From Fodinibius sp. Rm-B-1B1-1 (GTDB lineage Bacteria > Bacteroidota > Rhodothermia > Balneolales > Balneolaceae), in assembly GCF_038594945.1 (NCBI RefSeq), contig NZ_JBCFYD010000001.1, positions 1,302,001-1,366,000 of the forward strand: a stretch of 64,000 bases of DNA. The letters are read 5' to 3'. The position numbers and the translations under genes are program-made. Numbering within the stretch: the first letter of the stretch is position 1; each line of letters starts with the position of its first letter. Of the stretch, positions 17,951 to 45,490 are shown in pieces. Under the pieces are notes generated by a model. That model searched no databases. It saw only the letters and a list, made by a program, of their open reading frames with translations, and was not told the DNA's origin.

Positions 17951-19492
17951 TTAGTTGTTAAATATTTTTTGATATTTCCCCTCTAACATAGTCACTTCAT
18001 CTTCGGTCAACGCCTCAAATTCTTTAGTCCGTGCACGCTTGGATAACGTGCCATCATTTTGACGTAAGAATCCTATAAGGTTTTCCATATCCTTATCAGG
18101 CATATCAAAATGCTCTGCTATAAACGTTCTCATCTTGTCATGTCGCTCCAGGTACTGAACTTCTTCCGGTAACGTATCGGTAACCGTTTCCTCTACGCAT
18201 TCATATAGAAATTCAGCATGTTTGGTAGCATCAAAGTATCTGTATAGATCAATCGTGTCATTTAAGACTTCGACATTTCCATCTGGTGTTGCCTCCCATT
18301 CAATGAAGTCAAGCTGTAGCTTGGAATAAGATTCCAGTACCTCCCTATACTCATCAATCCGGTCAAGAATAACTGCTGAAACAGGAAAAATAAGTCCTTT
18401 GGGGGCAAACCCTTTCTTTGCTAACACATGATGTATTAAGTATCGATGTACACGACCGTTTCCGTCTGCGAAGGGATGGATAAATACGAAGCCAAAAGCA
18501 ATGAGAGTGGCTGCTAATACCGGATCATAGTCACTATCAATTAGTGATTGGTTCGTTTTTAGTAAACCTTCCATGAGTTGGGGGAGATCTTGCCACTTTG
18601 CAGAAATATGATCTGGAACCGGCTTGCTATTCACTCTATTATGGACGCCTATAAATCCTCCTTCCTGGCGCCAGCCCATATCTACAAATCGCCGATCTTC
18701 TATGACAATCTCTTGTAGTCGTAGTAATTCATCCTTTGTAAGGTCTTTCTGGCCAGCCTGACCAATGGCCTTGCCCCAACGTTCCGCACGATTTTCTGGA
18801 GGTGTTTCGCCCTCAATGGCATAGGAGGCTTTGGAATCTTTGAGCAGAAGAAATGCTGCAGCACGTGATAATAAATCAGGATGAACCTTACCTATCGTGT
18901 TTTTTACTTTTTTTTCTAAGTCCTCAACACTAATGTTTTCGAGCTTTTCTGTCCGTCTTACCAATGGGCAAAAATCCCTATTTCCTGGTAAGTTATTCCA
19001 AACTCTATGGCGCTTCGATCGTTCTTTAGGTCCGGGATATTGTAACGCAGGATCTAAGGCCTCGGTATAGTTGCCTGATTTAGCATCTTCTATATTAAGT
19101 TTTTCTTCCATCAACCATTCATAGAAAAACCATATACGCCGGCTATTACGGCCGGTGGGTTGATCCTGAACGATAGTCTCAATTTCAGTCTTCTCTATTT
19201 CTTCAAAGAGATTTTTTAAGATCAGTAGGTCAATTCCTTCATATCTAAAAGCAAAAGTTAAATGCCCAAGTAAGGTTTGGTCTGGTTCCTGTACTGTCCT
19301 AAATACCTGCCATTTACCTTCTGTATAGCTTCTGTGTTTCTCACTTATTGCAGAAAGAAGTTCAGGTAATGGTACTTCTAAATCATACCGGTAAATTAAT
19401 GCACTATACCCAGCCAGCTTCATGTTAGTTTCAGGAAGGGTATATTTACGAAAAACGGTTACATTATCTGAAAATCGATTATTTTTGGGCAT
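17951..19492 (-). CDS. Fic-domain protein (predicted AMPylase), long form
   Basis: A 513-residue protein with a central Fic core, 'HPFADGNGRVHRYLIHHVL', which carries the catalytic His and the Gly/Asn/Arg of the HPFx(D/E)GNGR motif. Upstream of it, 'SYAIEG' fits the (S/T)xxxE(G/N) inhibitory helix, so the protein should be autoinhibited (class II). Fic enzymes transfer AMP or other nucleotides to target hydroxyls. The N-terminal ~200 residues and the C-terminal ~100 are helical and not recognised. It is divergent from the PLD-like gene, with a short repeat-bearing region between them. Confidence 0.88.
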   Translation of the reverse strand: MPKNNRFSDNVTVFRKYTLPETNMKLAGYSALIYRYDLEVPLPELLSAISEKHRSYTEGKWQVFRTVQEPDQTLLGHLTFAFRYEGIDLLILKNLFEEIEKTEIETIVQDQPTGRNSRRIWFFYEWLMEEKLNIEDAKSGNYTEALDPALQYPGPKERSKRHRVWNNLPGNRDFCPLVRRTEKLENISVEDLEKKVKNTIGKVHPDLLSRAAAFLLLKDSKASYAIEGETPPENRAERWGKAIGQAGQKDLTKDELLRLQEIVIEDRRFVDMGWRQEGGFIGVHNRVNSKPVPDHISAKWQDLPQLMEGLLKTNQSLIDSDYDPVLAATLIAFGFVFIHPFADGNGRVHRYLIHHVLAKKGFAPKGLIFPVSAVILDRIDEYREVLESYSKLQLDFIEWEATPDGNVEVLNDTIDLYRYFDATKHAEFLYECVEETVTDTLPEEVQYLERHDKMRTFIAEHFDMPDKDMENLIGFLRQNDGTLSKRARTKEFEALTEDEVTMLEGKYQKIFNN

Positions 19493-19644: not shown

Positions 19645-20322
19645 ATGGCAGAATTCTTAACTACAATTGGCATTTCATCAAAGCTTGAGGATATAATAAA
19701 TTATTCAAAACAAGAGCTCATACTTATATCACCTTACTATCAACTTTCAGAGACTTTTTATAATCGGATGATTGAAGCCTCCAGACGAGGTGTAAACATC
19801 ACTATAGTTTTTGGAAAGAAACGACTTAAGAGTAATGAATTTTACACATTTGCTGAGATTCCCCAATTGGAGCTACTTTACTGTCACAATCTTCATGCGA
19901 AATGTTATTTCAATGAAGTGGATATGGTCGTTTGTTCCATGAATATGTATGCCTATTCTCAACGAAACAATCGTGAGATGGGGGTTTTTATTCAGAGAAA
20001 TAATGATCATGATTTCTTTAACAAAGCCAAACAAGAAGCTTTTTCTATCATTGATTCATCTGAATTGGTAGGATCTAATCGTCAATACTCTAATTCAGTT
20101 CAAACACAAAAGAGTAGTGGTGACTACGGGTTTTGTATTCGATGCGAAACTAAGATCTCTTTTGATATTGGACGACCTTATTGCCAGAGTTGCTTTTCGG
20201 TTTGGATGGATTTTCAAAACCCAGATTATCAAGAAAGTGTTTGCCATTCATGTGGAGTTAAAGAGCCAGCTACTTTAAGAAAACCCTTTTGTTATGGTTG
20301 TTTTACCAATTATATGGTTTGA
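19645..20322 (+). CDS. PLD-like domain protein with two C-terminal zinc ribbons
   Basis: A 225-residue protein. Residues about 1-135 resemble a phospholipase-D-superfamily nuclease domain. 'LHAKCYFNEVDMVVCSMN' matches the HxK...(D)...GSxN motif, but with Glu at the usual Asp position and Cys-Ser in place of Gly-Ser. Only one such motif is present, as in dimeric PLD nucleases. The C-terminal ~70 residues hold two CxxC pairs of the treble-clef/zinc-ribbon kind: 'CIRCETK...YCQSCF' and 'CHSCGVK...FCYGCF'. It lies just upstream of the Dnd-like operon, separated by 364 bp, and may be a nuclease partner of it (inference). Confidence 0.65.
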   Translation: MAEFLTTIGISSKLEDIINYSKQELILISPYYQLSETFYNRMIEASRRGVNITIVFGKKRLKSNEFYTFAEIPQLELLYCHNLHAKCYFNEVDMVVCSMNMYAYSQRNNREMGVFIQRNNDHDFFNKAKQEAFSIIDSSELVGSNRQYSNSVQTQKSSGDYGFCIRCETKISFDIGRPYCQSCFSVWMDFQNPDYQESVCHSCGVKEPATLRKPFCYGCFTNYMV

Positions 20323-20686: not shown

Positions 20687-22687
20687 ATGAAAATCATTAC
20701 AGACCTTTCTATAGAAGAGCTTATTGCTAAAGAAAATCTTAGTACAAGAGCCTCAAATTTACTTGAGAGAGAGAAATTCAATAATCTTTCGAGTCTACTT
20801 TCTTATTATCAAGCTCATGGTGATTTTAAGAAACTAAAGAGTTGCGGGAATAAGACTTCTGATCAGTTAGTTGCTATATGCAAAAAGTACGGAAGTCTTG
20901 AATATGAAATAGTTAAGAATATAAACTATGCTAGTTTAGAGAAGGATTTAAATAGAAGTCAAAAGCAAATAATTATAAACTATTTCAAGGAGTATAAAGG
21001 TCGCCTTTCTAAAAAAGCGATTAAACATGTGAATGAGTTTTTAGAGGTTAATCCAAGCTTGTCTAAAATTTGCTCAGAATTCTTAGATATAGAAATCTCT
21101 TCTTTTTTAAAGGAAGAAACCCTTTCGAATGAAAAATTGATCAGAGAAGTTAAAAATTTTCAAAAACAGGTTGGTGATTTAGTTCAAAAGGTATACAACA
21201 ATAGGGATGTTGAGGATATCAAAGGGTTTTTAATAAAAAACGATTTTGATAAAAATTTTTCTCAGAATGAAGAGCTAATTAGTATCTGGGAAGAGTTAAG
21301 AAACAAACATAACAAATTTCCTGTGTTTAAATTTTGTGCTAAAGTGATAAACTTAGGGATAGGGTTTAACGAAACAGAACACTACATTTTTAATAATTAT
21401 TTAAATTATTATCAGGAACATACGAGAGCTACTTTAGAGGAAATAGGAGAAGAGGTTGGGCTTACCCGAGAGAGAGTTAGGCAAATAAGAAATAACTTAA
21501 TAGAGGAGTTCAACGACAAATTTCAATTTATTCAGCCACTGTCTTATTCAGTTGATATAGAAAATATATATGATTTAGATTTTGAAACTGGATTTATTTT
21601 TATTTCTGATTCAAAAGTTAAGGAAATTAATGACTCAGAAGGTACTTCTTTTAATAGCCTTTTTATTACTAAAATATTCCACCTCTTCTGCAGAAACTCT
21701 TATGACTTTTTAGGTTATGAGCTAAATTTTCATTCTCAACAGCAACGAAAGAAATATTTGTCGCTTGAGTATCCTTATCTCTTTTCTAAACAGCTACTTA
21801 ATGAGTTTTCCCCAACTAAATTTATCAAAGATATAAAAAAACGCTTAAGTGATGATATAAAGGATAGTTATACTTTAAATTTGAGAGCATATATCTTTAG
21901 GTTTACAAAGTCTACTGATTTAGATCTAATTTCAGTATTAGAAAAGCCTTGCAAGATTATTATAAATAATGAGTTCGAATTGCTGATCAATTTAAATGGA
22001 GAAATAATATTTGAAAGAAATAAAAAGAAATATAATTATGAAATTATAGAGGAAGCTCTTGAAAAGCTGGGGTACGATAAAAATGGATATCATGTAACTG
22101 AAATAAATGAAAAAATAAATGAACTCTATCCTGACATTGATTATAGTGATAACCTTCAAGCTTTAAGTGGAATCATAAATAACTATAAAGCGATATTTAT
22201 TCATATTGGTAGGAGCAGTACTTATGCACTAAAAAAATGGGAGCGAACATTCACTGAATTTAAGGGGGGGACAATAAGGGATATTATTGAAGAATTTTTA
22301 GTAAAAAAGGATAAGCCCCAACACATGTCTGTGATAACAGATCATGTAAACAAGTATCGGGATACTACTACTCAGGTAATTTACTCAAATTTAAAATTAG
22401 ACGATTCAAAACGCTTTGAATTTTTTGGAGAAGGGTTTTTAGGACTAAATGATAAAGACTATAAAAATGAGGATACTGAATTTAATAACCTTAATGGTTT
22501 TGTTTTTTCTAAAAAAAGATTAGAAAAATATATACCTGACTATTATGATAATGTTTTAAAAAATATTAGCAAAGATAATGAGGTACTAGAAGTACAAGTG
22601 AAATCTTCTTTGGATAATAAGATTGATAAAGGAGACTTAGTAGTAAATAGTAATAATATTGTGAGATTTAATGATGAAAAGAGTTGA
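20687..22687 (+). CDS. sigma-like HTH and HARE-HTH protein of Dnd-like operon
   Basis: A 666-residue protein and the first gene of a four-gene operon. Residues about 1-70 resemble the helix-hairpin-helix region of the RNA polymerase alpha C-terminal domain. At about 247-275, 'TLEEIGEEVGLTRERVRQIR' is a sigma-70 region 4-type helix-turn-helix. Two HARE-HTH-like segments follow: one near 'YEIIEEALEKLGYD...HIGRSSTYALKKWE', and one near 'GGTIRDIIEEFLVKKDKP...RFEFFGEGFLGL'. HARE-HTH modules are known from proteins linked to DNA modification and restriction. I infer a DNA-reading or regulatory subunit. The C-terminal end overlaps the next gene by 17 bp. Confidence 0.7.
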   Translation: MKIITDLSIEELIAKENLSTRASNLLEREKFNNLSSLLSYYQAHGDFKKLKSCGNKTSDQLVAICKKYGSLEYEIVKNINYASLEKDLNRSQKQIIINYFKEYKGRLSKKAIKHVNEFLEVNPSLSKICSEFLDIEISSFLKEETLSNEKLIREVKNFQKQVGDLVQKVYNNRDVEDIKGFLIKNDFDKNFSQNEELISIWEELRNKHNKFPVFKFCAKVINLGIGFNETEHYIFNNYLNYYQEHTRATLEEIGEEVGLTRERVRQIRNNLIEEFNDKFQFIQPLSYSVDIENIYDLDFETGFIFISDSKVKEINDSEGTSFNSLFITKIFHLFCRNSYDFLGYELNFHSQQQRKKYLSLEYPYLFSKQLLNEFSPTKFIKDIKKRLSDDIKDSYTLNLRAYIFRFTKSTDLDLISVLEKPCKIIINNEFELLINLNGEIIFERNKKKYNYEIIEEALEKLGYDKNGYHVTEINEKINELYPDIDYSDNLQALSGIINNYKAIFIHIGRSSTYALKKWERTFTEFKGGTIRDIIEEFLVKKDKPQHMSVITDHVNKYRDTTTQVIYSNLKLDDSKRFEFFGEGFLGLNDKDYKNEDTEFNNLNGFVFSKKRLEKYIPDYYDNVLKNISKDNEVLEVQVKSSLDNKIDKGDLVVNSNNIVRFNDEKS

Positions 22688-22865
22688 AGAGATAAAAAAT
22701 AATCAAGAAGATAGGTTAAAAAAATTATGTGAGGAGCATAAAATAGATCATGATTCTCTTAAGAGGCTGATAAAAGCTGAAAAAATAAAAAAACTCTTAA
22801 AGAGGAAGGCTTCGATGCAACAAACAATCTCAAAGGAAATAAATAGGGTTATTAATGAAGATTAA
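22671..22865 (+). CDS. small coiled-coil protein of Dnd-like operon
   Basis: A 64-residue, Lys/Glu-rich protein, almost entirely alpha-helical. It overlaps the upstream gene by 17 bp and the downstream dndD-like gene by 11 bp, so it is translated as part of the operon. Small coiled-coil proteins occur next to DndD-type ATPases in some modification or defence loci, so it is probably a structural partner of the ATPase. The Met at the start is doubled (MMKR), so the exact first codon is uncertain by one. Confidence 0.6.
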   Translation: MMKRVEEIKNNQEDRLKKLCEEHKIDHDSLKRLIKAEKIKKLLKRKASMQQTISKEINRVINED

Positions 22866-24948
22866 AAAGGTACGACTCCAGAATTATCGACAATATTATG
22901 GAGTTAATGAAATTGATCTGACCACGAATTCAGAAGAAAATATAATCTTAATTGGTGGAAAGAATGGATATGGTAAAACGAATCTTCTTCTCGCGTTTGT
23001 TTGGTGCCTTTATGGAGATAGAATTTCGAAAACTGATTCCCTTTTTAGAAAACAAATTCATAAGGATGGTAACTATCCTAAATTTTTAAAGAATACATTA
23101 AATTGGGATGCAAAAAAAGAAGGACAGGTTGAATATTCTGTAGAAATAGAATTTCAAGATTTAAACTTACCGGATTCTTTTAATCAAGAGGCATCATCAT
23201 GTAGAATAAAGAGAAGTGTAAATACTGAAACACTTGAAGAAGACCTATTAGTTTCAATTCCTAATCATAATAATGGCTTATTTAAGGAGGAGGAAGATAA
23301 AATAAACTTTATAAATGATTACCTGATACCTCTGGATGCAACTAAATTTGTGTTTTTTGATGCCGAGAAAATAGCACAAATGGCAGAACTTTCTACCCGG
23401 GAAGAAGGTGAGTTAATGAATGATGCATTGGGTAATATTCTAGGTCTTGATATTTATGAAAATCTGGTAGAGGATTTGAGGCTATATTCAGATAATCTGA
23501 AGAAGGAAGGAGCTACTGGGAATATTAGAGATCAAATAATTGATGCGGAATCTACTATAAAGTTAAAGAGTGCCAATATCGAGAAACATGAAAAGAGAAT
23601 TGCAGAGTTAGAAGAGACAATAACTGACCTGGAAAATAAAATTGATCAATACAATGAGTTTATTAATGATCGGGTTGGGACAAAAGATTCTATTGAAGCT
23701 GTAAATAAACTGCATGAAAGAAAGTCAAAATTAGAAGCTGAAATAAATGATGCTGAAGAAAGGTTTGGAGAAATCGCAGAAATAATACCTTTTGGTCTTG
23801 TTTCTAATTTAATAGAAGAGACAGTAGCACACTTAAATAAACAAGAGTCTATAGAATTGAAAAATAAGGAAGAGAATTCTATAGAGAATAAGGCCGAACG
23901 ATTCGTAGAAAAACTATTCAATAAACCTGAATTTCCACCTAGTGAGGATATGTCATTTTCAGCCAAATCATTTTATGCTGAGAAGGCTAAGAAAGTAGTA
24001 AAAAGTGTTTTTGCTAATGATAATGAGGAGGAAGCATCGCTAAAATTCTATCATGATCTTACAAATTCTGATCAACAGCTTATAGAAGATACATATAATT
24101 TGATTCAGGGCAATATCGATAAATCTTTTAAGGTTCATACAAAAGATCTAATTGCACTTAACAATGAACTTAATGAGGTAAATTCTAAAATACGCCAATT
24201 TGAATCGGAGGCTGCGGATGATGAGGTGATAACTTATCGTGATAGGAAATTACGAGCAAGTAATCAAATTGAGAAGCACAACAAGGAAATTGGAGTTGCT
24301 GAAAATGAAATAAAAAAAATGGAAGATGATATAAAGCAACTCAAGAAAAATAAAAAAATACTTTTAAAGAAAAGTGCTCTTTCCAAAAAGAGACAAAAGG
24401 AAATTGATATTATAGAAGCCTATATTGATTTATTGAATGACTTTATTGTTCAAGAGAAAAAGGAAAAATCTGAACGACTTTCAAATAATATTCTTGATGA
24501 ACTAAGGGTATTAATGCACAAGCTGGCAAATAGAGATACTGATTTAATTTCGGATGTTTCAGTAAATCCATTACCAGATAATGAGGGCTTGAAGATTGAA
24601 TTATTTGATTCAGAAGGAAAAAAATTCAGAAAAGAGTCATTATCAGAAGGTGAAAAGCAATTATATATATCTTCTTTGATAAAGGCTCTTCTTAATGAAG
24701 CAATTCAAAATTTTCCGATTGTAATTGATACCCCACTTGGTAGGCTAGACGAGGAACATATTAGAAATATACTCGAGTATTTTTATCCTAATTTAGCTGA
24801 TCAGGTGATATTAATGACTACAAGTAGTGAAATTCCACCTGCTAGGAAGAAAATTATAGAAGACCAAATTGCAGCTTCATATTTACTTATGAATAAGAAT
24901 AATCAGACAAGTTTTAAGCAAGGATATTTCGGAAATTATGAGAATTAA
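22855..24948 (+). CDS. dndD: DndD-type SMC-like ATPase
   Basis: A 697-residue SMC/Rad50-like ATPase. It opens 'MKIKKVRLQNYRQYYG' with Walker A 'GGKNGYGKTNLLLAFVWCLYG' at residues about 34-42. It has long central coiled coils and ends with the ABC signature 'LSEGEKQLYISSL' and Walker B 'FPIVIDTPLGRLDEEH'. The 'DTPLGRLD' and 'TTSSEI' ends are characteristic of DndD, the ATPase of the Dnd DNA-phosphorothioation systems. No dndC-type PAPS-reductase-like gene or cysteine desulfurase is nearby, so sulfur insertion by this operon alone is not supported. Overlaps both neighbours. Confidence 0.85.
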   Translation: MKIKKVRLQNYRQYYGVNEIDLTTNSEENIILIGGKNGYGKTNLLLAFVWCLYGDRISKTDSLFRKQIHKDGNYPKFLKNTLNWDAKKEGQVEYSVEIEFQDLNLPDSFNQEASSCRIKRSVNTETLEEDLLVSIPNHNNGLFKEEEDKINFINDYLIPLDATKFVFFDAEKIAQMAELSTREEGELMNDALGNILGLDIYENLVEDLRLYSDNLKKEGATGNIRDQIIDAESTIKLKSANIEKHEKRIAELEETITDLENKIDQYNEFINDRVGTKDSIEAVNKLHERKSKLEAEINDAEERFGEIAEIIPFGLVSNLIEETVAHLNKQESIELKNKEENSIENKAERFVEKLFNKPEFPPSEDMSFSAKSFYAEKAKKVVKSVFANDNEEEASLKFYHDLTNSDQQLIEDTYNLIQGNIDKSFKVHTKDLIALNNELNEVNSKIRQFESEAADDEVITYRDRKLRASNQIEKHNKEIGVAENEIKKMEDDIKQLKKNKKILLKKSALSKKRQKEIDIIEAYIDLLNDFIVQEKKEKSERLSNNILDELRVLMHKLANRDTDLISDVSVNPLPDNEGLKIELFDSEGKKFRKESLSEGEKQLYISSLIKALLNEAIQNFPIVIDTPLGRLDEEHIRNILEYFYPNLADQVILMTTSSEIPPARKKIIEDQIAASYLLMNKNNQTSFKQGYFGNYEN

Positions 24949-26521
24949 GAGAAGTAAGAAACAAGATGAGCTGATTACAGAGCTAACTAATATATTTGAT
25001 TTTAAATATGACGGAATTATATCTAGAATTGCATTTGTATATAGTTTAAAGAAGGGTAAAGAGTTTGCACCTAAAGATGCTGAAGATATTCCTTCAGATG
25101 GGAAAGAATTTAGAGACGGAAAAGCAATATTTGGCACTTCTCAAAGTGGTAAAAATTATTATCCGGTTTTCAAAGCGATACTAGATGAATATTACGGGGG
25201 GCGTACTACTGAAGAACAGTTTTCACAGTATTTTAAACTTCATCTAGATCATGGTTTAGCAGCTTTGAAGAATGAGATAGAAGAACTAAATATTACAAAA
25301 GGTGAACATATTGAGCATTTAGCAAGCTTAGTAAATGATAGTTTGGATTTAATTGGAAAAAATGATTCTCCAAAAGGGTATACGAAAAAGGAAAATTGGG
25401 ATTTCCCAGTTTATAATAATCTAGTAGAATTTGAACTAGGTAGTTCGGAAGATAATAAGGTGAACATTCCTTTAAATGATTTAAATGAATTCGATAGCCA
25501 TCATATAGCTATTGCTGGTATGACTGGGGCTGGTAAAACCCAATTAATTAAGGATATATTATACCAAATAAGTAGTAATACAAATCAAAAGCTTAATTAC
25601 ATATTTTTTGATTATAAGGGGGAAGGAGATCCAGATTCTTTAGATCAATTTTTGGATTCAACTAGCGCAAAATTTATCGATTTATTAAATGATCAATTTG
25701 ATTTTAATCCACTAGAATATATTAGTCTTGACTCTGAGAGAGAACAGAACTTCCAAATCCAATCATTTATTGATAGTGTAAGAGCAATTGAAACACAAAT
25801 AGGTGTTAAACAAGAACATCATTTAAAAAAAGTAATTAAAGACTGTTTTGATTCTGCCGATCGCGTACATCCAAGTTTAAATGAAATATCAAATAGACTT
25901 GAAGAGTATTACAGCGAGAATAACATATCACCAGATTCACTTTTAAGTACAATTTCAAAGTTGTCTAGCGGATTATTTAATCGTAGCGAGGAATCAACTA
26001 AACGTATTTTTGATGAAAGTGTCTACTTGAATCTCCCAATTACTTTAGCTGATACAACTAGACAACTTTGTGTTTTCTTGGTTTTAAAATATTTGTTGGA
26101 AATGTTTAGTAAGTCAGATGATACCCAGCCTAAAAAATCATCAAGCATTAAACCCTTAAGATATGTAATTGTAATTGATGAGGCACATGTATATCTCAAA
26201 AACAAGAATGCTAGAAAAATTTTAGAACAATTACTCCGTGTGATAAGATCAAAAGGGGTGGTTGTGGTGATGTTAACTCAAGGAATTGAAGATTTTAGAA
26301 AAGGCGACTTTGATTTCTCCTCGCAAGTTAAAATACCTGTCTGTTTGAATATAAAAACAAAGGATAAAAAAGCACTAGTTAACTTTTTGGGAACCCCATC
26401 TAGTGAATACAAACTGGAAGATGCAGCATCTAAGCTCGAGAATGGCAAGGGATTAGTAAATTTTAAAGAACCTTTACTTTTTGATATCCGTCAATTTTAT
26501 AAAACTATGAGTAGCATTTAA
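24938..26521 (+). CDS. DndE-like domain fused to HerA/FtsK-type ATPase
   Basis: A 527-residue fusion. Residues about 1-115 ('RIKRSKKQDELITELTNIF...ISRIAFVYSLKKG') match a DndE domain. Stand-alone DndE is a small tetramer that binds nicked DNA. The C-terminal ~350 residues are a HerA/FtsK-superfamily translocase: Walker A 'GMTGAGKTQLI' at about 194-204, and Walker B 'VIVIDEAHVYL' at about 410-420. HerA ATPases often drive DNA processing in defence systems. It overlaps dndD by 11 bp. The downstream 190 bp hold no further gene of the operon. Confidence 0.8.
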   Translation: MRIKRSKKQDELITELTNIFDFKYDGIISRIAFVYSLKKGKEFAPKDAEDIPSDGKEFRDGKAIFGTSQSGKNYYPVFKAILDEYYGGRTTEEQFSQYFKLHLDHGLAALKNEIEELNITKGEHIEHLASLVNDSLDLIGKNDSPKGYTKKENWDFPVYNNLVEFELGSSEDNKVNIPLNDLNEFDSHHIAIAGMTGAGKTQLIKDILYQISSNTNQKLNYIFFDYKGEGDPDSLDQFLDSTSAKFIDLLNDQFDFNPLEYISLDSEREQNFQIQSFIDSVRAIETQIGVKQEHHLKKVIKDCFDSADRVHPSLNEISNRLEEYYSENNISPDSLLSTISKLSSGLFNRSEESTKRIFDESVYLNLPITLADTTRQLCVFLVLKYLLEMFSKSDDTQPKKSSSIKPLRYVIVIDEAHVYLKNKNARKILEQLLRVIRSKGVVVVMLTQGIEDFRKGDFDFSSQVKIPVCLNIKTKDKKALVNFLGTPSSEYKLEDAASKLENGKGLVNFKEPLLFDIRQFYKTMSSI

Positions 26522-27094: not shown

Positions 27095-27352
27095 ATGTAC
27101 ATGGATATTAAATTCGTAGATCGAGAAAAAATTTATACTTCCAAACGAAGGTCTTCCAAGTTTAAGCCGTTATTGGAGGCCCTGGACAAATTAGAAGTAG
27201 GGGGAGATGCCATTGAGGTTGACTATGAAGACGAAAAAAGTGTAAACTCAATGCGCACTGCGGTTTATCAGTATAATCAAAAAAAGGGTGTTAAGATTAG
27301 AAGTGGTAAAGATTCGGAAAACAAGAAGATTTACTTTTATCGAGAACGATAA
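27095..27352 (+). CDS. small basic protein, unknown function
   Basis: An 85-residue protein rich in Lys, Arg, Asp and Glu, with a 'KRRSSKFKPLLEALDKLEVGGDAIEVDYEDE' core. The tail 'GVKIRSGKDSENKKIYFYRER' looks like a short beta-rich nucleic-acid-binding C-terminus (inference). A Met two codons in is an alternative start. It is about 60 bp upstream of egtD on the same strand. Confidence 0.55.
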   Translation: MYMDIKFVDREKIYTSKRRSSKFKPLLEALDKLEVGGDAIEVDYEDEKSVNSMRTAVYQYNQKKGVKIRSGKDSENKKIYFYRER

Positions 27353-27411
27353 TAAGGAGGCTGCGCGTTAATTGTATGTAGTCAAGACCGCGAATAGCTA
27401 AAGGTTTTTGT

Positions 27412-28356
27412 ATGAATAATCTATCGGCTGTAGACCAATCTTCGATGCTCAATGAGGTAGTGTCGGGGTTATCAAGGGAACAGAAACAATTGCCCAGCAA
27501 GTATTTTTATGATCAGCATGGGTCCGATTTGTTTGAACAGATTACCTACCTTGATGAATATTATTTGACGGATTGTGAAAAGGAGATCCTGAAAGAAAAT
27601 ATTAAAGAGATAGCTGATTATATTGGCTCGAATGTCATGCTGATAGAATTGGGTAGTGGCAACAGTTATAAAACCCGATTTTTGCTTGAAGAACTCTCTG
27701 AACTGTCTACCTATATTCCGGTTGATATTTCCGAAGAATATTTACTCAAGACGGCCAACCAGCTTCGGATCGAATATCCTCGAATATCAATAATACCTGT
27801 TTTTGCTGATTATACTTCTCAGTTCGATTTACCTGTTTCTGATTCTTCCAATCAAAAGCAGGTGGTCTTTTTTCCGGGATCAACTATTGGCAACTTTTCA
27901 CCGGAAGAGGCAAAAGCGTTTATAGATAATATTGCAACTATTACTACGAATGATGCTGAAATGCTTGTTGGGGTGGACCTAAAGAAAGACAAGGCAATTT
28001 TAGAGGCTGCATATAATGATCGGGAAGGGGTAACGGAAGCATTTAATAAAAATATGTTGAAGCACATAAATCGAAAACTGGGCGCCAATTTTGATACCAA
28101 AAAGTTCAGTCACAATGCTTTTTACAATGAAGATGCCGGACGTGTTGAGATGCACTTGGTATCAACTGAGGAGCAGACAGTTTCTATTGGTGATACTATT
28201 TTTCAATTTGATGAGGGAGAATCTATCCATACCGAAAATTCGTACAAATATAGTTTAAATGATTTTGAAGAGTTGGTCAGCAAGTGGTATTCGGTAGAGA
28301 AAGTTTGGACTGACAAACAGGGTTACTTTTCGTTGCAATATCTTAAAAAGAAATAG
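27412..28356 (+). CDS. egtD: L-histidine N-alpha-methyltransferase (EgtD family)
   Basis: A 314-residue SAM methyltransferase of the EgtD family, which trimethylates histidine to hercynine in ergothioneine biosynthesis. The start 'LPSKYFYDQHGSDLFEQITYLDEYYLTDCEKEIL' is the family signature. The SAM site is 'MLIELGSGNSYKTRFLLEEL', and 'VVFFPGSTIGNFSPEEA' is another conserved block. No egtB or egtC is in the window, so ergothioneine synthesis here would need genes elsewhere. A 45-codon ORF follows 4 bp after its stop. Confidence 0.9.
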   Translation: MNNLSAVDQSSMLNEVVSGLSREQKQLPSKYFYDQHGSDLFEQITYLDEYYLTDCEKEILKENIKEIADYIGSNVMLIELGSGNSYKTRFLLEELSELSTYIPVDISEEYLLKTANQLRIEYPRISIIPVFADYTSQFDLPVSDSSNQKQVVFFPGSTIGNFSPEEAKAFIDNIATITTNDAEMLVGVDLKKDKAILEAAYNDREGVTEAFNKNMLKHINRKLGANFDTKKFSHNAFYNEDAGRVEMHLVSTEEQTVSIGDTIFQFDEGESIHTENSYKYSLNDFEELVSKWYSVEKVWTDKQGYFSLQYLKKK

Positions 28357-40735: not shown

Positions 40736-42787
40736 TTATTTCTCAAAATTTGGTTGGAAAATAAATTGAGAGTCAAAGTTAATTATTGTAGAATCTAAGC
40801 CTTTTGTCATTTCAAATACAGGCTCTTTGTCCTCACTTGTTGTAATAATTGTTTGGTTTTTATCCTCTTCTAAATTTGAACAAAACTTAAAAAATTGATA
40901 ATAGTCTTCATGGTCAACTTCCTGTTGTCGGGGTTCATCAAAAAATGAAATTCCTAAGTGTTTTTGAGCAAACTCATTCGAGATACTTTGGATTGCAAGC
41001 ATATAAGACCAGATTAACCTAATTCCATCACTGGCTGAGGTATCAAATGCTAATTCAATACCTTCTGCTGTTGGGCGGTAGTTTTCTAAAGAGATGCTTA
41101 CTTCGTCTAGATTAGTACTTTTAAAACCAAACCTTTTTAATAGAGACTTAGTAGTATTTTTCAAAGAGGTCAACTTTTTATGATCAGTTTGAGACAAAAG
41201 GTCAGAAGGGAGTTCAGCCTCTCTAGATAATATCTTTGACCATTGAGCAGTAAGTTTTTCAAGATCTTTAAATTTTTCTAAAAAGTTTGATCTAGTTTTT
41301 TCATACAGGCTTAAATCATTTTTTAGTTCAATTAGTTTTCGAAGTTCAGCTTCACTAGGAATTCTACCATCCTGTAATATTTCACTTTTTAAATTCCTAA
41401 TTTCAGTTCGCAAACCATTTATTTTGTCTTTTTTGTTTTTAACAGAGACTTCTTTGGCTTGAAGTGCATTTTCAGATTGGGAAATCAGTACCTTTATAGC
41501 TGATCTTTGTTGTTTTAAATATTCGATGTTGTCCTTGATCGACATAGGACTTCTTGTCTCAGTAGCTTGTGGATCTAACAAGCTGGAAGAAATTTTTTGA
41601 AGGCAGGTCGGGCAAGTCTCTTTCGCTACTGTACTATTTAAATCAGATGCATATTTTTGGATCTTGTGGGCATCTTGATTGTTTTTAATTTCTTCTTCAA
41701 TTGTACTCAAACGCTTATGTAGTTTTTCTTTCTCCTTTTTCTCTGAAATATATTCTTCTCGATTTTTCTGATATGAAATTTCAAGAAGGAAAAGTTTGTC
41801 CTCAAGTTCATCAATCTTTTTGGAGAGTTTTTCTTTTTCCTGATCGGCATCTTCAATCTTTGGCTCTAACTCTTCTTTTTTCTGTTCAATTATTTCTCTA
41901 GTATTAATGATGTGTTGATTTAAATTAATCCAATCATCACCTTGTTCAATTAGCAAAATAGGCGATTCTTCAATATTAACCGTTGGTTTGGTAGGGATTT
42001 TCTTTACCATACAATCAATATATGAGGCAATGGATTTTAACTCGTCAATTGTACTCTTCCATTTATTTGAGATGCGATTTTTCTCGTAGGTTATTTCCTG
42101 TTTTAGCTTATAGTTTTTTGAGGCATCTAAACCGAGTAAATATTCAGTAGCTTGTTTCTTAGGATCGCGTATTCCAAAAATTGTGGGGGTAGTAGCTTGG
42201 ATAGCAGCCCAACCTCTTTTTTGTTCTACGAAGTGCAAGGGCATCAAGCACTCCATATAAAGTTTTGTGCTCCTATCATCGTATCGGGGAACTTTGGGTA
42301 GCTCCCAGTCGAAAAAGTTTTCTAGAAATTTGTGAAACCCTTTAGGATTAGTAGCAGCTCCAGGATCATGTAAATAGAATTCTACTCTTTCTAAATGATT
42401 TTGATTATTCGATAATCTGAAACCTTTGTCAACTAGTACTAGACGATTATCATTTTCACTTTTTATAAATCTTTTTATTGTGATTTTTTCTCCTTGATGG
42501 TTGCTGATTTCTAATTCAACAAAAGATTCTAAAACATTTCTGCGGGTATTGTCATCTATTTTAATAGCTTCTTTTAAGGCAGGAACTAAGTTTAAACTCC
42601 CTTTTTTACCTTGGATAATAATTTCAAAACCAAGTGCATACAATATGCAATTTAGGCATGAGCTTTTTCCAGAGGTATTTTCAGCTCTAATAATGTTTAA
42701 ACCTGAACCGAACTCAATATCAGTGCCAAACTTCTCCTCATTAGTGTGAATAGTAACTTTTAATCTGTGTAGATTAAGACGTTGCAT
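40736..42787 (-). CDS. SMC-like ATPase of an ABC three-component system
   Basis: A 683-residue SMC/Rad50-type ATPase. The N-terminus 'GSGLNIIRAENTSGKSSCLNCILYALGF' carries Walker A. A long coiled coil carries a zinc-hook-like 'CPTCLQ', and the C-terminus has 'SDGIRLIWSYMLAIQS' and a Walker B-like 'LGISFFDEPRQQ'. This is the ATPase of an ABC three-component (ABC-3C) conflict system as described for bacterial defence ABC ATPases. It is the third gene, 5 bp after the middle component. Confidence 0.75.
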   Translation of the reverse strand: MQRLNLHRLKVTIHTNEEKFGTDIEFGSGLNIIRAENTSGKSSCLNCILYALGFEIIIQGKKGSLNLVPALKEAIKIDDNTRRNVLESFVELEISNHQGEKITIKRFIKSENDNRLVLVDKGFRLSNNQNHLERVEFYLHDPGAATNPKGFHKFLENFFDWELPKVPRYDDRSTKLYMECLMPLHFVEQKRGWAAIQATTPTIFGIRDPKKQATEYLLGLDASKNYKLKQEITYEKNRISNKWKSTIDELKSIASYIDCMVKKIPTKPTVNIEESPILLIEQGDDWINLNQHIINTREIIEQKKEELEPKIEDADQEKEKLSKKIDELEDKLFLLEISYQKNREEYISEKKEKEKLHKRLSTIEEEIKNNQDAHKIQKYASDLNSTVAKETCPTCLQKISSSLLDPQATETRSPMSIKDNIEYLKQQRSAIKVLISQSENALQAKEVSVKNKKDKINGLRTEIRNLKSEILQDGRIPSEAELRKLIELKNDLSLYEKTRSNFLEKFKDLEKLTAQWSKILSREAELPSDLLSQTDHKKLTSLKNTTKSLLKRFGFKSTNLDEVSISLENYRPTAEGIELAFDTSASDGIRLIWSYMLAIQSISNEFAQKHLGISFFDEPRQQEVDHEDYYQFFKFCSNLEEDKNQTIITTSEDKEPVFEMTKGLDSTIINFDSQFIFQPNFEK

Positions 42788-42792
42788 ATTTT

Positions 42793-43275
42793 CTATCCCG
42801 TTATTTTTTCAAAAATTACTTTGAGTTGTTTTTCTGAGACTCTTCGACCAATATTTTCAAGTCTTTCTAATTCTGTATTAAGAATATTTTCACTATCAAT
42901 AATTTTATCAGCGAGTTCGATTCCATTTTCCGTAAGTTCTATTTTGCCATTGTTATCTATTGATAAAAATTTTTCAGATATCGCAAATTCTATTGTTCTG
43001 TTAATAGCTGGATCGAGGTGAATTGAATCCTCAGAAACAACGGTGCTAGAACTTACTATTTTGTGAAACTTTGCCAGATTTTCAGTTGAGGCAAATGCCC
43101 AATTAAAGAATTGTAGTTTAAGCACAGATGCTTTTTTTGCATAAGAGCATTTTTTAAGTACCAATAAAATAAATCCTAATTTTTTGAAGTATCTTAAACT
43201 AGAAGGAATTGAGATATTACTTCGATTTAGCTTAATATCTCCAATTGTATCAATTGGTATTAAATCTTCAATCAT
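42793..43275 (-). CDS. ABC three-component middle component (winged helix)
   Basis: A 160-residue protein. The C-terminal half 'INRTIEFAISEKFLSIDNNGKIELTENGIELADKI' is a winged helix, typical of the small middle component that couples effector and ATPase in ABC-3C systems. It follows the effector gene by 12 bp and precedes the ATPase gene by 5 bp. Confidence 0.7.
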   Translation of the reverse strand: MIEDLIPIDTIGDIKLNRSNISIPSSLRYFKKLGFILLVLKKCSYAKKASVLKLQFFNWAFASTENLAKFHKIVSSSTVVSEDSIHLDPAINRTIEFAISEKFLSIDNNGKIELTENGIELADKIIDSENILNTELERLENIGRRVSEKQLKVIFEKITG

Positions 43276-43287
43276 AAGTTCTTTAAT

Positions 43288-44193
43288 TTAGAAGTTAAGA
43301 GGACATTGGCATAGCCAATAAGAAACTGTTCTCATTGATATGTGACGAGCTACGGCGTTAGATATTTGTCCTTCAAATTCTTGAACTAACTCCTTCCTAA
43401 AATCATTTGACGTTTCGATAATGAATTTTTTTGGAGAATCTTGTCCAAGGTTTGATTTCATTTGGACTTCTTGTTCCCAAGAATTTATCAGCTTTGTTAG
43501 TTCTTCGTGAAAGTCTGGTAGGTTTCTGTTTAAATCATCTAATAAAGCCTCGCCCTTAATCAAGGCTTCTATATTGTTATGTATATAATCTGTTTTCTTT
43601 TTTCTATCCTGAATAACCTTTGAAAGCTTATTCTCTAAATTAGAATAAAATTGGTTTCTAGACTTTTTCCATTGCTCAATTTCATCTTGATCAACATCAG
43701 GAATCTTCGGATCGAAAGTTAAGGAATTGACCTTATGAAGTTTTTGAATTTCAATTGTATAATTATTTTCAATTCTTAGTTCAATGTTGAAATTATCAAC
43801 TTCAACATGTTTACAATTGCATTCTCTTACAAGTTCTTCCTTGTTTCGACAGTGTTTAATTAGGTCTTTGCTTTCATACTTAGGAGTTACAAATCTCCAA
43901 GTATGTATTTTGGATGGCCTGATAAGATTTAAAATATCGTCTTCATTACGTATGAGCTTTTTAATGTCTTGAGTTATTTTATTTCTCTGTCTCTCATAAA
44001 GTTCATCTGATGTTGGGTGTCCATCTGGACAATAACATTGAAAAGCAACACCACTTCGAGTGAACCCTTCAATACCTAAATCACCATCATACTTGGCTGG
44101 TACCTCTGTATAATCTGAAAATTTTATTTTAAGAATTTTGTGAACTAATTCTTCCCATTGGTTTCCATCAACTTCGCCCGTAAGTATTTTCAT
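43288..44193 (-). CDS. ABC three-component effector, PD-(D/E)XK-like
   Basis: A 301-residue protein. The N-terminal ~55 residues ('WEELVHKILKI...YDGDLGIEGFTRSGVAFQCYC') fit a restriction-endonuclease-like PD-(D/E)XK fold: Glu in the first helix, GD then an IEG strand, and Q-x-Y where Q-x-K is usual. The middle and C-terminus are helical, ending in a domain seen in ABC-3C effectors. It is the first gene of the cassette and is probably the nuclease effector of the system; the Lys-to-Tyr change makes activity uncertain. Confidence 0.65.
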   Translation of the reverse strand: MKILTGEVDGNQWEELVHKILKIKFSDYTEVPAKYDGDLGIEGFTRSGVAFQCYCPDGHPTSDELYERQRNKITQDIKKLIRNEDDILNLIRPSKIHTWRFVTPKYESKDLIKHCRNKEELVRECNCKHVEVDNFNIELRIENNYTIEIQKLHKVNSLTFDPKIPDVDQDEIEQWKKSRNQFYSNLENKLSKVIQDRKKKTDYIHNNIEALIKGEALLDDLNRNLPDFHEELTKLINSWEQEVQMKSNLGQDSPKKFIIETSNDFRKELVQEFEGQISNAVARHISMRTVSYWLCQCPLNF

Positions 44194-44599
44194 AAATAGT
44201 AATTAGTTAAACTCTTCCGAAAAGCCTCAAGTTATATTTAACCCATTCGTATGTTCCTGTAGAATTGGTTCTTACTTGATATAAGTTCTCTGTCTTTGCT
44301 TAGTGGGTGTAAATAACAACGAATGGAAATGTAAAGTGTATAGATTAGGTTGGCAATTAATAATTGTTTGTGCCAATAAAAAAAATGTGAGGGTTAAGTT
44401 GCTGTTTCTTGACATCTTACGGCAATATCTTATCGCTAATTGTGCCCAGGACTGGATTGCAATACAGTTTCACCGTCAAATATTGTTTAAACCTTTACCC
44501 CTTTTACCAAAAATAGCATGATTCAGGGCTTGTTTATAGCATTATAATTCACCGTTTTTATTAGTTTGGTTTTAGGAGGCTACCCTCCATGTTTTCTAA
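44194..44599. other. 405-bp gap: right flank of the ABC cassette
   Basis: No supported gene. It holds the promoter region of the ABC cassette (44194-44448) and the right direct repeat (44449-44557), then 42 bp to the HNH stop. Short ORFs here are unsupported. Confidence 0.6.
44449..44557. repeat. right ~110-bp direct repeat flanking the ABC cassette
   Basis: Pairs with 40615-40724 in the same orientation. It lies 42 bp past the HNH gene stop, the same kind of position as the left copy has past the ATPase stop. Confidence 0.75.
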
Positions 44600-45490
44600 T
44601 TAAATTTGCTTAAACTCTTGATACCTCACATCCAAAAACTCCTGCTTCGGCCAAGCTTTCTTAGATTTGGGCAATATTAATTTCTGGTCTTGCAGTTCCT
44701 GAATACCGTGTTTCAGCATGGGCCCATCGTTTTCACGTAGTACATCTTCTTTCACTTTTATTTGGTAATCTGGCGAAATGCCGATGATGTGTTGGTCAAA
44801 AGCGGCGTGATGAATCTTGCATAAGGCCAAACCATTGTTAACCGAAGGAATCCCTTCCTCTTCTTTGTCGCCGATAATATGAGCGGCATCCAAAAGCTCT
44901 TCATGTTTTAACTGGCAAAAGGCACACTGCGATTGGTAGGCCGCCATAACCCGCTCTCTGAATCCACGCTGGTGGAGTCGTCTTTTTACGGTTGAGGTAA
45001 TGTAAGCCCGTCGGTATTTATTCTCTTCGTTGAGCTCGTTTTCTTCGTATTCAATTTCATACTGGTCGTCGGCCGCTACTTTAAAGGTCAGTGCATCGGG
45101 GTTGTCGCCAATTATATATACAGGCCATACGGCTAAGTATTTACTGGGCACAACGCCATGAAAGTAAATGAGTGGAATTTCTTCCTGCATACATTTTCGC
45201 AAGCCCACATTATCGCGGTGCATGGGGTCGGTACCACGATATTTATAAAGCAGGAAGTCATCTTCGTCAAAACTGTCTTTATAAGGGCCTTTGGGAGAGG
45301 TGGTTATGGTGAGCGGTAGATCCAGCTGCTTGGGTTTAAAAATTCCCTGTGGTGAAACTAATGGTATTCTTGTGTCTTTGAATTGGAACCCCTTAGCTAA
45401 TTTATCCCGATTTAATACGTCCCCGTGCTTTTCCACTTGGTCTGTTAGCCAGTTAAAAGCCGCCAACCGTACTTGCTTGTCCAGATCCAT
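44600..45490 (-). CDS. HNH endonuclease with an N-terminal recognition-like domain
   Basis: A 296-residue protein. The C-terminal part 'CAFCQLKHEELLDAAHIIGDKEEEGIPSVNNGLALCKIHHAAFDQH' is an HNH nuclease domain with the Cys/His metal cluster. The N-terminal ~150 residues ('LPLTITTSPKGPYKDSFDEDDFLLYKYRG') resemble the PUA/SRA-like modules that read modified bases in type IV restriction enzymes, but this is only a visual resemblance. It is divergent from another HNH gene. Confidence 0.78.
   Translation of the reverse strand: MDLDKQVRLAAFNWLTDQVEKHGDVLNRDKLAKGFQFKDTRIPLVSPQGIFKPKQLDLPLTITTSPKGPYKDSFDEDDFLLYKYRGTDPMHRDNVGLRKCMQEEIPLIYFHGVVPSKYLAVWPVYIIGDNPDALTFKVAADDQYEIEYEENELNEENKYRRAYITSTVKRRLHQRGFRERVMAAYQSQCAFCQLKHEELLDAAHIIGDKEEEGIPSVNNGLALCKIHHAAFDQHIIGISPDYQIKVKEDVLRENDGPMLKHGIQELQDQKLILPKSKKAWPKQEFLDVRYQEFKQI

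What the first reader, a model, noticed from the sequence alone, without database searches (positions are those of the whole stretch)
20687..26521. Dnd-derived operon without DndC: sigma/HARE protein, small coiled coil, DndD ATPase, DndE-HerA fusion
Four genes overlap by 11-17 bp, so they act as one unit. The DndD-type ATPase and the DndE-like domain are known from phosphorothioation systems, but no DndC-like sulfur-transfer gene, DndB or cysteine desulfurase is in the window. The first gene joins alpha-CTD-like and sigma-4-like HTH modules with HARE-HTH domains. The whole block is AT-rich and sits in an accessory region. It could be a phosphorothioate-independent defence or DNA-processing system that uses DndD/DndE-type scaffolds with a HerA motor.
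Basis: partly seen in the sequence, partly recalled or inferred. Interest (0 to 1): 0.85.

Follow-up and report, generated by a model that had tools for sequence, protein, structure and literature searches.

The report
Dnd operon stripped to DndC tail
A four-gene bacterial system, probably against foreign DNA, was built from the machinery that puts sulfur into DNA, but it lost the sulfur-inserting enzyme and kept only that enzyme's short tail as a separate tiny gene, so it probably works on DNA without the sulfur mark.

Summary
In detail: four overlapping genes (20687-26521) encode an alpha-CTD/sigma-4/HARE-type DNA-binding protein (g1), a 64-aa protein (SP), a DndD ATPase and a DndE-HerA fusion. 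No DndC was found in the genome. The same four-gene operon occurs in 29 genomes found here, mostly Bacteroidota; 28 of 29 have no DndC over cut-off.

The new result is what the 'small coiled coil' is. SP is homologous to the C-terminal ~60 residues of DndC. An SP profile run on 2178 ORFs picks out, above its inclusion threshold, one SP and 33 DndC proteins and nothing else; shuffled and reversed controls are clean. A published study places a DndD-binding element of DndC in this segment (PMC12193691, passages; mapped). Four sister operons have g1-DndC-DndD-DndE/HerA, and trees put DndC-bearing systems at the base. So the catalytic body of DndC was probably lost and its ATPase-docking tail kept. 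Some PbeB-type small proteins match the same tail, others do not.

The DndE-HerA fusion itself is in print (PMC10853773). Function is inferred: a sulfur-free DNA-surveillance or blocking complex, probably defence. New variant of a known kind.

The parts
20687..22687 (+). g1: 666-aa multi-HTH DNA-binding protein (alpha-CTD-like HhH, sigma-70 region-4 HTH, tandem HARE-type winged helices)
   Evidence: AF2 mean pLDDT 82.7, pTM 0.57; no PDB match at E<=0.001, weak rows include a UFL1/DDRGK1 chimera, a Pol III subunit, many sigma subunits and an RpoE model
20708..20866 (+). alpha-CTD-like domain of g1 (aa 8-60)
   Evidence: PF03118 E 0.022 in the window protein, 25 of 33 family members at E<=0.1, best 7.3e-20
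21422..21487 (+). sigma-70 region-4 HTH of g1 (aa 246-267); invariant E262, R263, R265
   Evidence: PF04545 26.8 bits, cut-off 24.1; invariants
22034..22456 (+). HARE-type tandem winged-helix region of g1 (about aa 450-590)
   Evidence: PF05066 in 9 of 33 members, not in the window protein itself; extent judged by eye from the alignment and the model's secondary structure
22671..22865 (+). SP: 64-aa stand-alone homologue of the DndC C-terminal, DndD-binding tail
22855..24948 (+). DndD ABC/SMC-type ATPase, no CxC zinc hook
   Evidence: TIGR03185 over cut-off; CxC 0 of 29; Walker A 29, signature 28, Walker B 28 of 29 relatives by pattern
24938..26521 (+). DndE-HerA fusion: DndE domain plus HerA/FtsK-type ATPase
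   Evidence: PF08870, PF01935, PF05872, PF12846 over cut-off; PADLOC DndH 86 bits over aa 158-484
24941..25282 (+). DndE domain (aa 2-115)
   Evidence: PF08870
25433..26458 (+). HerA/FtsK ATPase domain (about aa 166-507), Walker A GMTGAGKT, Walker B VIVIDEAH
   Evidence: Walker A 29 and Walker B 28 of 29 relatives

Best explanation
It is a phosphorothioation-derived DNA-surveillance system that has lost the sulfur chemistry. Inferred history: a Dnd operon with a DndE-HerA fusion gained a multi-HTH protein (g1) upstream of dndC; then the PP-loop/Fe-S body of DndC was lost while its C-terminal tail stayed as a separate gene (SP). Inferred mechanism: SP docks on the globular head of DndD as the DndC tail does; DndD and the DndE domain close round DNA; g1 supplies the DNA or transcription-complex recognition that the DndC body used to give; ATP-driven HerA pumps or holds the DNA, blocking invading DNA without marking it. 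Shown by computation: gene content, absence of DndC, SP-tail homology, conserved ATPase motifs, kinship. Inferred: complex formation, DNA pumping, target and defence.
For: The SP profile (30 sequences) on 2178 ORFs of 80 aa or more: above the inclusion threshold are one long-start SP and 33 of the set's 44 DndC proteins, nothing else, always at their C-terminal end. No reversed or shuffled ORF scores E<0.02, and 36 of 44 real tails score >=15 bits against 0 of 4388 reported shuffled tails. Independent DndC models hit SPs: PADLOC PDLC02662 17 of 28, best E 2.2e-5 (limit E 10); TIGR03183 17 of 28, best 3.4e-4 (limit E 1); for the window's SP the match is at the models' C-terminal end. The DndC model has a low-confidence linker (357-360) and then three separate tail helices. 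PMC12193691 (passages seen): E. coli B7A DndC residues 433-482 are predicted to bind the DndD head, and L458D/E462A/R471A breaks binding in a pull-down; L458 aligns with SP residue L33, invariant in 28 of 28, and R471 lies next to invariant R45. DndC over cut-off in 1 of 29 genomes of this type and 4 of 4 sister-type genomes. Kinship. PMC6459918 (passages): deletion of pbeB, pbeC or pbeD abolishes virus resistance, and the authors see no cleavage of viral DNA. A few neighbours are CBASS, DRT, R-M or integrase genes.
Against: No defence, DNA-binding or pumping assay exists. No nuclease or other effector is conserved beside the operon (ORFs of 90 aa or more, up to 10 kb where contigs allow). The PbeABCD precedent is imperfect: it lost protection without dndCDEA (PMC6459918 passage), and PMC10853773 (section 16) argues that cleavage is part of it. 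SP holds only the first of the two DndC-DndD interfaces that PMC12193691 predicts. Full-length g1 also occurs without DndD or DndE-HerA near it (L143, L144), so g1 may have a role of its own. The group with SP is one clade with high support only without L028; with L028 the careful DndD tree gives 71/25, so one loss of DndC is likely, not proved. Many genomes are draft or metagenome assemblies, so absence of DndC is not absolute; one (G412) has DndC on another contig. SspD-type enzymes were not searched. The neighbour scan had no background control.
Confidence: 0.62

Rival explanations
1. Transcription-linked regulatory or DNA-maintenance system, not defence: g1 joins three RNA-polymerase-related modules (alpha-CTD, sigma-4, delta/HARE-like), and the DndD/DndE-HerA complex acts on the chromosome or a mobile element during transcription or segregation.
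For: Domain make-up of g1; sigma subunits and an RpoE model among the weak Foldseek rows; orphan g1 copies; no conserved nuclease beside the operon.
Against: Sporadic occurrence: DndE-HerA in 4 of 394 phylum genomes (2 of them this type) and none of the 7 other congeners searched. Some neighbours are defence or mobile genes. A sigma-type HTH protein also leads a PbeABCD-like operon on two plasmids.
Confidence: 0.17
2. Still a DNA-modifying system: an unrelated host enzyme or an unrecognised domain provides phosphorothioate or another mark in place of the DndC body.
For: PMC10853773 (section 11) raises alternative modification for DndC-less systems; single neighbours are methylases.
Against: No DndC over cut-off in 28 of 29 genomes; no methylase or other enzyme is a conserved neighbour; g1 shows no enzyme fold by Pfam or Foldseek. 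SspD-type enzymes were not searched.
Confidence: 0.12
3. SP is an unrelated small charged helical protein whose likeness to the DndC tail is compositional.
For: Short, lysine-rich, helical; 7 of 13 PbeB-type candidates do not match the tail profile; 11 of 44 DndC proteins stay below the inclusion threshold.
Against: Same operon slot as DndC; shuffled and reversed controls empty; independent PADLOC and NCBIfam DndC models hit it; the long coiled-coil DndD proteins in the same ORF set are not hit.
Confidence: 0.04
4. A decaying Dnd operon on its way to loss.
For: The largest catalytic part is missing; the DndE-HerA frames of L028 (407 aa) and L039 (388 aa) are short.
Against: The same overlapping four-gene order in 29 genomes; ATPase motifs kept in 27-29 of 29; SP in all 30 loci, one of them a duplicate record.
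Confidence: 0.03

Closest known systems
HerA/FtsK clade-3: DndE fused to HerA beside a DndD-related ATPase (Rakesh, Aravind and Krishnan 2024, PMC10853773, section 22)
   Same: Same DndE-HerA fusion and same neighbour ATPase.
   Different: [quoted passage not shown] Here there is no DndC, a g1 gene leads the operon, and the tail of DndC is a gene of its own. The sections and passages seen do not mention this.
PbeABCD / CxC ABC-ATPase systems (PMC6459918 passages; PMC10853773 section 16)
   Same: Small protein, then ABC ATPase, then DndE; the small protein is needed for defence there; some PbeB-like proteins match the DndC tail; a sigma-type HTH protein leads two such loci.
   Different: No CxC motif in DndD (0 of 29), no PbeA (HKD nuclease + SF2 helicase), DndE fused to HerA.
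Canonical DndBCDE phosphorothioation
   Same: DndD, DndE and the tail of DndC.
   Different: No catalytic DndC body; no DndB over cut-off.
DndFGH restriction module
   Same: Among PADLOC models DndH scores best for the DndE-HerA protein, over its HerA part.
   Different: The DndH N-terminal domains are absent; search for DndF inconclusive.

Membership tests
Canonical Dnd phosphorothioation | DndC PP-loop/Fe-S sulfur-transfer enzyme | tested here: not met
   0 matches in own genome; over cut-off in 1 of 29 genomes of this type; only the tail remains
Canonical Dnd phosphorothioation | DndD ATPase | tested here: met
   TIGR03185 281.1 bits over cut-off 245.9
Canonical Dnd phosphorothioation | DndE | tested here: inconclusive
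   PF08870 over cut-off; equivalog TIGR03184 below cut-off
Canonical Dnd phosphorothioation | DndB regulator | tested here: not met
   No candidate in own genome; 0 of 42 genomes over cut-off, 5 with weak matches (2 of 29 of this type). The model is strict: DndB-like genes beside some other fusion operons also stay below it
Canonical Dnd phosphorothioation | Phosphorothioate in DNA | not testable with these tools
   needs LC-MS/MS
PbeABCD / CxC system | CxC zinc hook in the ABC ATPase | tested here: not met
   0 of 29 DndD of this type
PbeABCD / CxC system | PbeA: HKD nuclease fused to SF2 helicase | tested here: not met
   no such conserved neighbour in 34 loci; the window's PLD gene has no helicase part and no phmmer relative (E 1e-5) in the loci then held
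PbeABCD / CxC system | Small protein (PbeB) upstream of the ATPase | tested here: met
   SP in all 30 loci; kinship with PbeB-type proteins shown for some only
DndE-HerA fusion group (clade-3 of PMC10853773) | DndE fused to HerA next to a DndD-type ATPase | tested here: met
   that the window's HerA belongs to their clade-3 by tree was not tested
DndE-HerA fusion group (clade-3 of PMC10853773) | Part of a PT-modification operon | tested here: not met
   no DndC; met in other fusion operons (L007, L008, L044 and others)
MZA system | MzaA-type sigma HTH protein with its partner genes | tested here: not met
   MzaA model hits 5 of 33 g1 proteins, not the window's; no other conserved neighbours

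The most novel reading that the evidence does not exclude
The DndC tail is a stand-alone ATPase adaptor shared by DndD- and CxC-type complexes (fused in DndC; separate as SP and as PbeB). In fusion-type dndC genes, where a methionine at the tail's start is conserved (42 of 44 aligned), the tail is also made alone by internal translation. Every Dnd-type ring could then exist in a sulfur-free form, and this operon has kept only that form as a phosphorothioate-independent defence.
Probability: 0.2. Interest if true: 0.82.

Novelty: new variant of a known kind. Interest (0 to 1): 0.66.

Why it matters
DndC-less DndD/DndE operons have been a puzzle: PMC10853773 (sections 11 and 16) counts DndC in only 70% of taxa with the modification module and calls the small protein of related systems a rapidly evolving, mostly disordered likely negative regulator or trigger sensor. 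If SP is the DndC tail, it has a defined partner (the DndD head) and a defined job (holding the ATPase complex). The split between DNA handling and sulfur chemistry then becomes directly testable with single mutants. It would also mean that the phosphorothioation machine was taken apart and re-used without its chemistry, which changes how systems annotated as DNA sulfur modification by their DndD should be read.

Tried and rejected
Considered and rejected: (1) SP as an unrelated coiled coil. (2) PbeABCD membership: no CxC, no PbeA. (3) The PLD gene (19645-20322) as the operon's nuclease: 364 bp upstream and without relatives in the other loci held; not excluded as a helper. (4) DndC in trans: no, except one genome. 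(5) DndFGH partner: the DndF search found nothing, but its controls rang nowhere, so inconclusive. (6) Viral contigs: no relative, but that pattern scan finds only close kin. (7) PDB sequence search of DndD (E 1e-5) and of a sister-type DndC (E 1e-3): no match. (8) Internal translation of dndC: base composition upstream of the conserved Met (A 0.46) lies between other internal Met codons (0.36) and real starts (0.50-0.53), with G at -3 in 34 of 42, unlike real starts; not decided. The E. coli, Agrobacterium, Halorubrum and L097 DndCs aligned lack this Met. (9) Paper searches for a sulfur-independent Dnd system or for DndC-PbeB kinship found none that states it in what I saw (listings; only three papers opened); two probably relevant papers, the 2020 ABC-ATPase survey and the 2012 HARE-HTH paper, are not held and were not seen.

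Results against and limits: 7 of 13 candidate PbeB-type proteins do not match the tail profile, and 4 of the 6 that do had already matched. 11 of 44 DndC proteins stay below the SP profile's inclusion threshold. In the EHerA tree the sister set is not one clade, and its root is unsure because L008 is very long. In the quick DndD tree the long row L008 (type C) falls beside types A and B. An AU test does not reject type A plus three of four type-B rows as one clade (p 0.074). Dropped rows: L030 is the same contig as L006; L039 and L028 were left out of the EHerA tree for short frames; short DndD rows were left out of the DndD tree; the careful DndD tree used 40 chosen rows of 70; L032 and L033 are untyped; L051, L054, L061 and L074 were called type C although the contig ends before the dndC slot. 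Of 206 relatives found by the scan only the best 80 (76 loci) were returned. Only the nearest 90 of 238 neighbour proteins (130-900 aa) were scanned, each listed PADLOC family is matched by one protein, the tables show 25 of 111 and 25 of 71 families, and there was no background control. My notebook says 34 of 34 DndC hits; the count is 33 DndC plus one SP. The first motif patterns were too strict and were replaced.
Full report
Observation. The block is AT-rich, GC 0.285-0.31 against 0.36-0.48 in most of the window, with a second AT-rich stretch at about 41-45 kb. DndD passes the NCBI equivalog cut-off (281.1 against 245.9 bits). The fourth protein carries DndE (PF08870 52.9 bits) and HerA-type domains; the DndE equivalog is below its cut-off. 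g1 carries a sigma-4 HTH in the window protein itself. Its alpha-CTD-like and HARE parts are clear only at family level: of 33 members, at E<=0.1, Sigma70_r4 in 30, alpha-CTD in 25 (best 7e-20), HA in 17, HARE-HTH in 9. No DndC is in the genome and no DndB candidate.

The family. A scan of one genome per species (GTDB r220) with a four-sequence DndE-HerA alignment found 206 relatives, of which the best 80 (76 loci) were returned. By gene content they fall into three kinds. Type A, like the window, is g1-SP-DndD-DndE/HerA without DndC: 30 loci in 29 genomes, mostly Bacteroidota by record title, plus one Desulfococcaceae and one Patescibacteria assembly. Type B is g1-DndC-DndD-DndE/HerA: L031, L035, L036, L038. 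Type C is DndC-DndD-DndE/HerA without g1: L007, L008, L044 and others. SP, 59-65 aa with one longer frame of 94, is present in all 30 type-A loci. Apart from the core genes and the DndC of type B, no neighbour of 90 aa or more is shared by more than 5 of 34 loci (contigs often end early). DndE-HerA is rare: 4 of 394 genomes of the phylum (two type A, two type C), and none of the 7 other congeners searched.

DndC is missing at genome level. The DndC model was run on 33 whole genomes, 29 type A and 4 type B. Over the cut-off: 4 of 4 type B and 1 of 29 type A (G412, on another contig); one more type-A genome (G419) has a 19.7-bit scrap. DndB is over its cut-off in 0 of 42 genomes, with weak matches in 5, two of them type A; that model is strict for this group. 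A DndF search found nothing but its controls rang nowhere, so it says nothing. SspD-type enzymes and cysteine desulfurases were not searched.

SP is the tail of DndC. PADLOC DndC models hit 17 and 9 of 28 SPs (limit E 10; best 2.2e-5 and 1.8e-5), for the window's SP at positions 401-456 near the models' C-terminal end. NCBI models TIGR03183 and PRK06850 hit 17 and 23 of 28 (limit E 1; best 3.4e-4 and 2.1e-4), again at that end for the window's SP. A profile of the SPs was run with all filters off on 2178 ORFs of at least 80 aa. Above the inclusion threshold are one SP with a long start and 33 DndC proteins and nothing else; the best is the type-B DndC of L031, E 1.5e-11, always at the C-terminal end. 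The set holds 44 DndC proteins, so 11 stay below the threshold. On reversed and on shuffled versions of the same ORFs nothing reaches E 0.02. Of 44 real DndC tails 36 score at least 15 bits, against 0 of 4388 reported shuffles (best 14.9). AlphaFold2 of the L031 DndC (mean pLDDT 81.1) shows a body to about 354, a drop in confidence at 357-360, and three separate helices between 364 and 422; the model matches PP-loop sulfurtransferases and APS/PAPS reductases in the PDB.

What the tail does. Fu and colleagues 2025 (PMC12193691; abstract and passages seen) predict by AlphaFold3 that residues 433-482 of E. coli B7A DndC lie on the globular domain of DndD, and report that L458D/E462A/R471A disrupts the DndC-DndD interaction in a pull-down. 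A second predicted interface, the very C-terminal helix of DndC on a DndD coiled coil, lies beyond the part that SP covers. I did not see the B7A sequence; an E. coli DndC in a public record (L095) has L, E and R at 458, 462 and 471. Aligned, L458 falls on SP residue L33 and R471 next to R45, both invariant in 28 of 28 SPs; E462 falls on E37, which is V in many flavobacterial SPs. So SP most likely is the DndD-docking element of DndC without the enzyme. This is an inference by homology; no SP-DndD complex was modelled here.

Direction of change. In the quick DndD tree rooted on two DndD proteins without a HerA fusion, types A and B form a clade (99*) that lies among type C, with the long type-C row L008 beside it. 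In the careful tree of 40 chosen rows, without L008, types A and B are separated from type C at 100/100*. Type B is one clade (86; 94/87). Type A is one clade at 80 in the quick tree but only 71/25 in the careful one; without the Desulfococcaceae row L028 it is 100*. In the DndE-HerA tree, without L028 and L039, type A is one clade (100*) nested among type B rows, with an unsure root. An AU test does not reject type A plus three type-B rows as one clade (p 0.074). The basal and sister systems have DndC, so g1 was probably gained first and the DndC body lost later, perhaps once.

Wider pattern. A profile of DndC tails run on 1400 ORFs from 20 other loci finds, below E 0.02, eleven ORFs: one type-A SP (L099), four long ORFs directly upstream of the ATPase (two annotated as dndC, L109 and L110; two presumed, L097 and L098) and six small ORFs beside DndD or CxC-type ATPases (L092, L093, L094, L096, L103, L106), of which four had already matched. 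In L096 (Methylorubrum) a ~380-aa DndC without tail is followed by the small gene, DndD and a DndE-HerA protein; in L103 (Rhizobium) a 379-aa dndC, a small protein, dndD and a protein annotated as DNA translocase FtsK follow each other (its DndE part was not checked). Seven other candidate small proteins did not match. The records name two small proteins as DNA-modification-system associated with no link to DndC. Two plasmids carry a sigma-type HTH protein matching g1 (E 9e-14 and 2e-20) before genes annotated as a phosphorothioation restriction enzyme, a small protein, an AAA ATPase and phosphorothioation-associated protein 4, which I take as PbeA-D. So both g1-like proteins and the tail recur around DndD/CxC ATPases.

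What is in print. Rakesh, Aravind and Krishnan 2024 (PMC10853773; abstract, sections 11, 14, 16, 17 and 22 and passages read) describe HerA domains fused to DndE beside a DndD-related ATPase (clade-3), DndDE dyads without other modification genes, and the small protein as a rapidly evolving, mostly disordered likely regulator. I saw no statement there, in the passages of the two other papers opened, or in the listings, that the small protein is the DndC tail. The 2020 ABC-ATPase survey and the 2012 HARE-HTH paper are not held and were not seen.

How it may work. Predicted DndCDE forms a ring with DndC and DndE lining the DNA channel (PMC12193691 passages). Here the catalytic and sequence-reading body of DndC is gone, the docking tail stays, DndE carries a HerA motor, and g1 offers several DNA-binding modules. 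ATPase motifs are kept: DndD Walker A 29, signature 28 and Walker B 28 of 29; HerA Walker A 29, Walker B 28 and sensor 27 of 29. g1's invariant residues sit in the sigma-4 helix and in the winged-helix part, and neither Pfam nor Foldseek shows an enzyme fold. The likeliest reading is a non-marking DNA clamp and pump that hinders invading DNA. PbeABCD offers an imperfect precedent: deletion of pbeB, pbeC or pbeD abolishes resistance and its authors saw no viral DNA cleavage, but it also needed dndCDEA (PMC6459918 passages), and PMC10853773 argues for cleavage. Defence is supported only by context: rarity, five of eleven congeners looked at with another arrangement at the same histidine-methyltransferase site, and single neighbours of type-A loci that match CBASS, DRT and R-M models, with three integrases (90 of 238 neighbours scanned, no background control).

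Limits. Full-length g1 also stands without the other genes in two genomes, and a partial one (L145) lies about 16 kb from a dndCD pair in a third. Counts rest on the best 80 of 206 relatives and on draft assemblies. The conserved Met at the start of the tail (42 of 44 DndCs of the fusion group) may mean internal translation, but the upstream composition does not decide it.

Noticed in passing
window 17951-19492 (-): Fic-domain protein matching PADLOC candidate defence family PDC-S24 (669.6 bits); a truncated relative stands near the same site in a congener (L150 6948-7355).
   Followed up: partly
window 19645-20322 (+): PLD/HKD-domain protein (225 aa) with cysteine pairs like zinc ribbons (by eye), 364 bp upstream of the operon; no relative in the other loci held.
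   Followed up: partly
L143 6237-8210; L144 8472-10625: Full-length g1 relatives without SP, DndD or DndE-HerA nearby, one of them in the window's own family.
   Followed up: partly
L091 and L102: Plasmid PbeABCD-like loci led by a sigma-factor-like HTH protein matching the g1 profile.
   Followed up: partly
L096 3641-5005; L103 3635-4982: dndC of only about 380 codons followed by a separate small gene that matches the DndC tail, then dndD.
   Followed up: partly
DndC genes of L007, L031, L035, L036, L038 and type-C loci: Methionine at the start of the DndC tail conserved in 42 of 44 aligned proteins, the most conserved Met column of the alignment; possible internal start or helix cap.
   Followed up: partly
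L028 10001-11587; L039 10001-11167: DndE-HerA frames look interrupted or short (407 and 388 aa).
   Followed up: no
L086 (G099): In-frame TAG reported inside the DndD match of a DndC-bearing fusion-type operon.
   Followed up: no
window 27095-28356: An 85-aa protein and a histidine-specific methyltransferase (EgtD-like) are kept together in the five congeners examined, with different genes upstream: a variable insertion site.
   Followed up: partly
window about 41000-45000: A second AT-rich stretch (GC 0.32-0.35) in the window.
   Followed up: no
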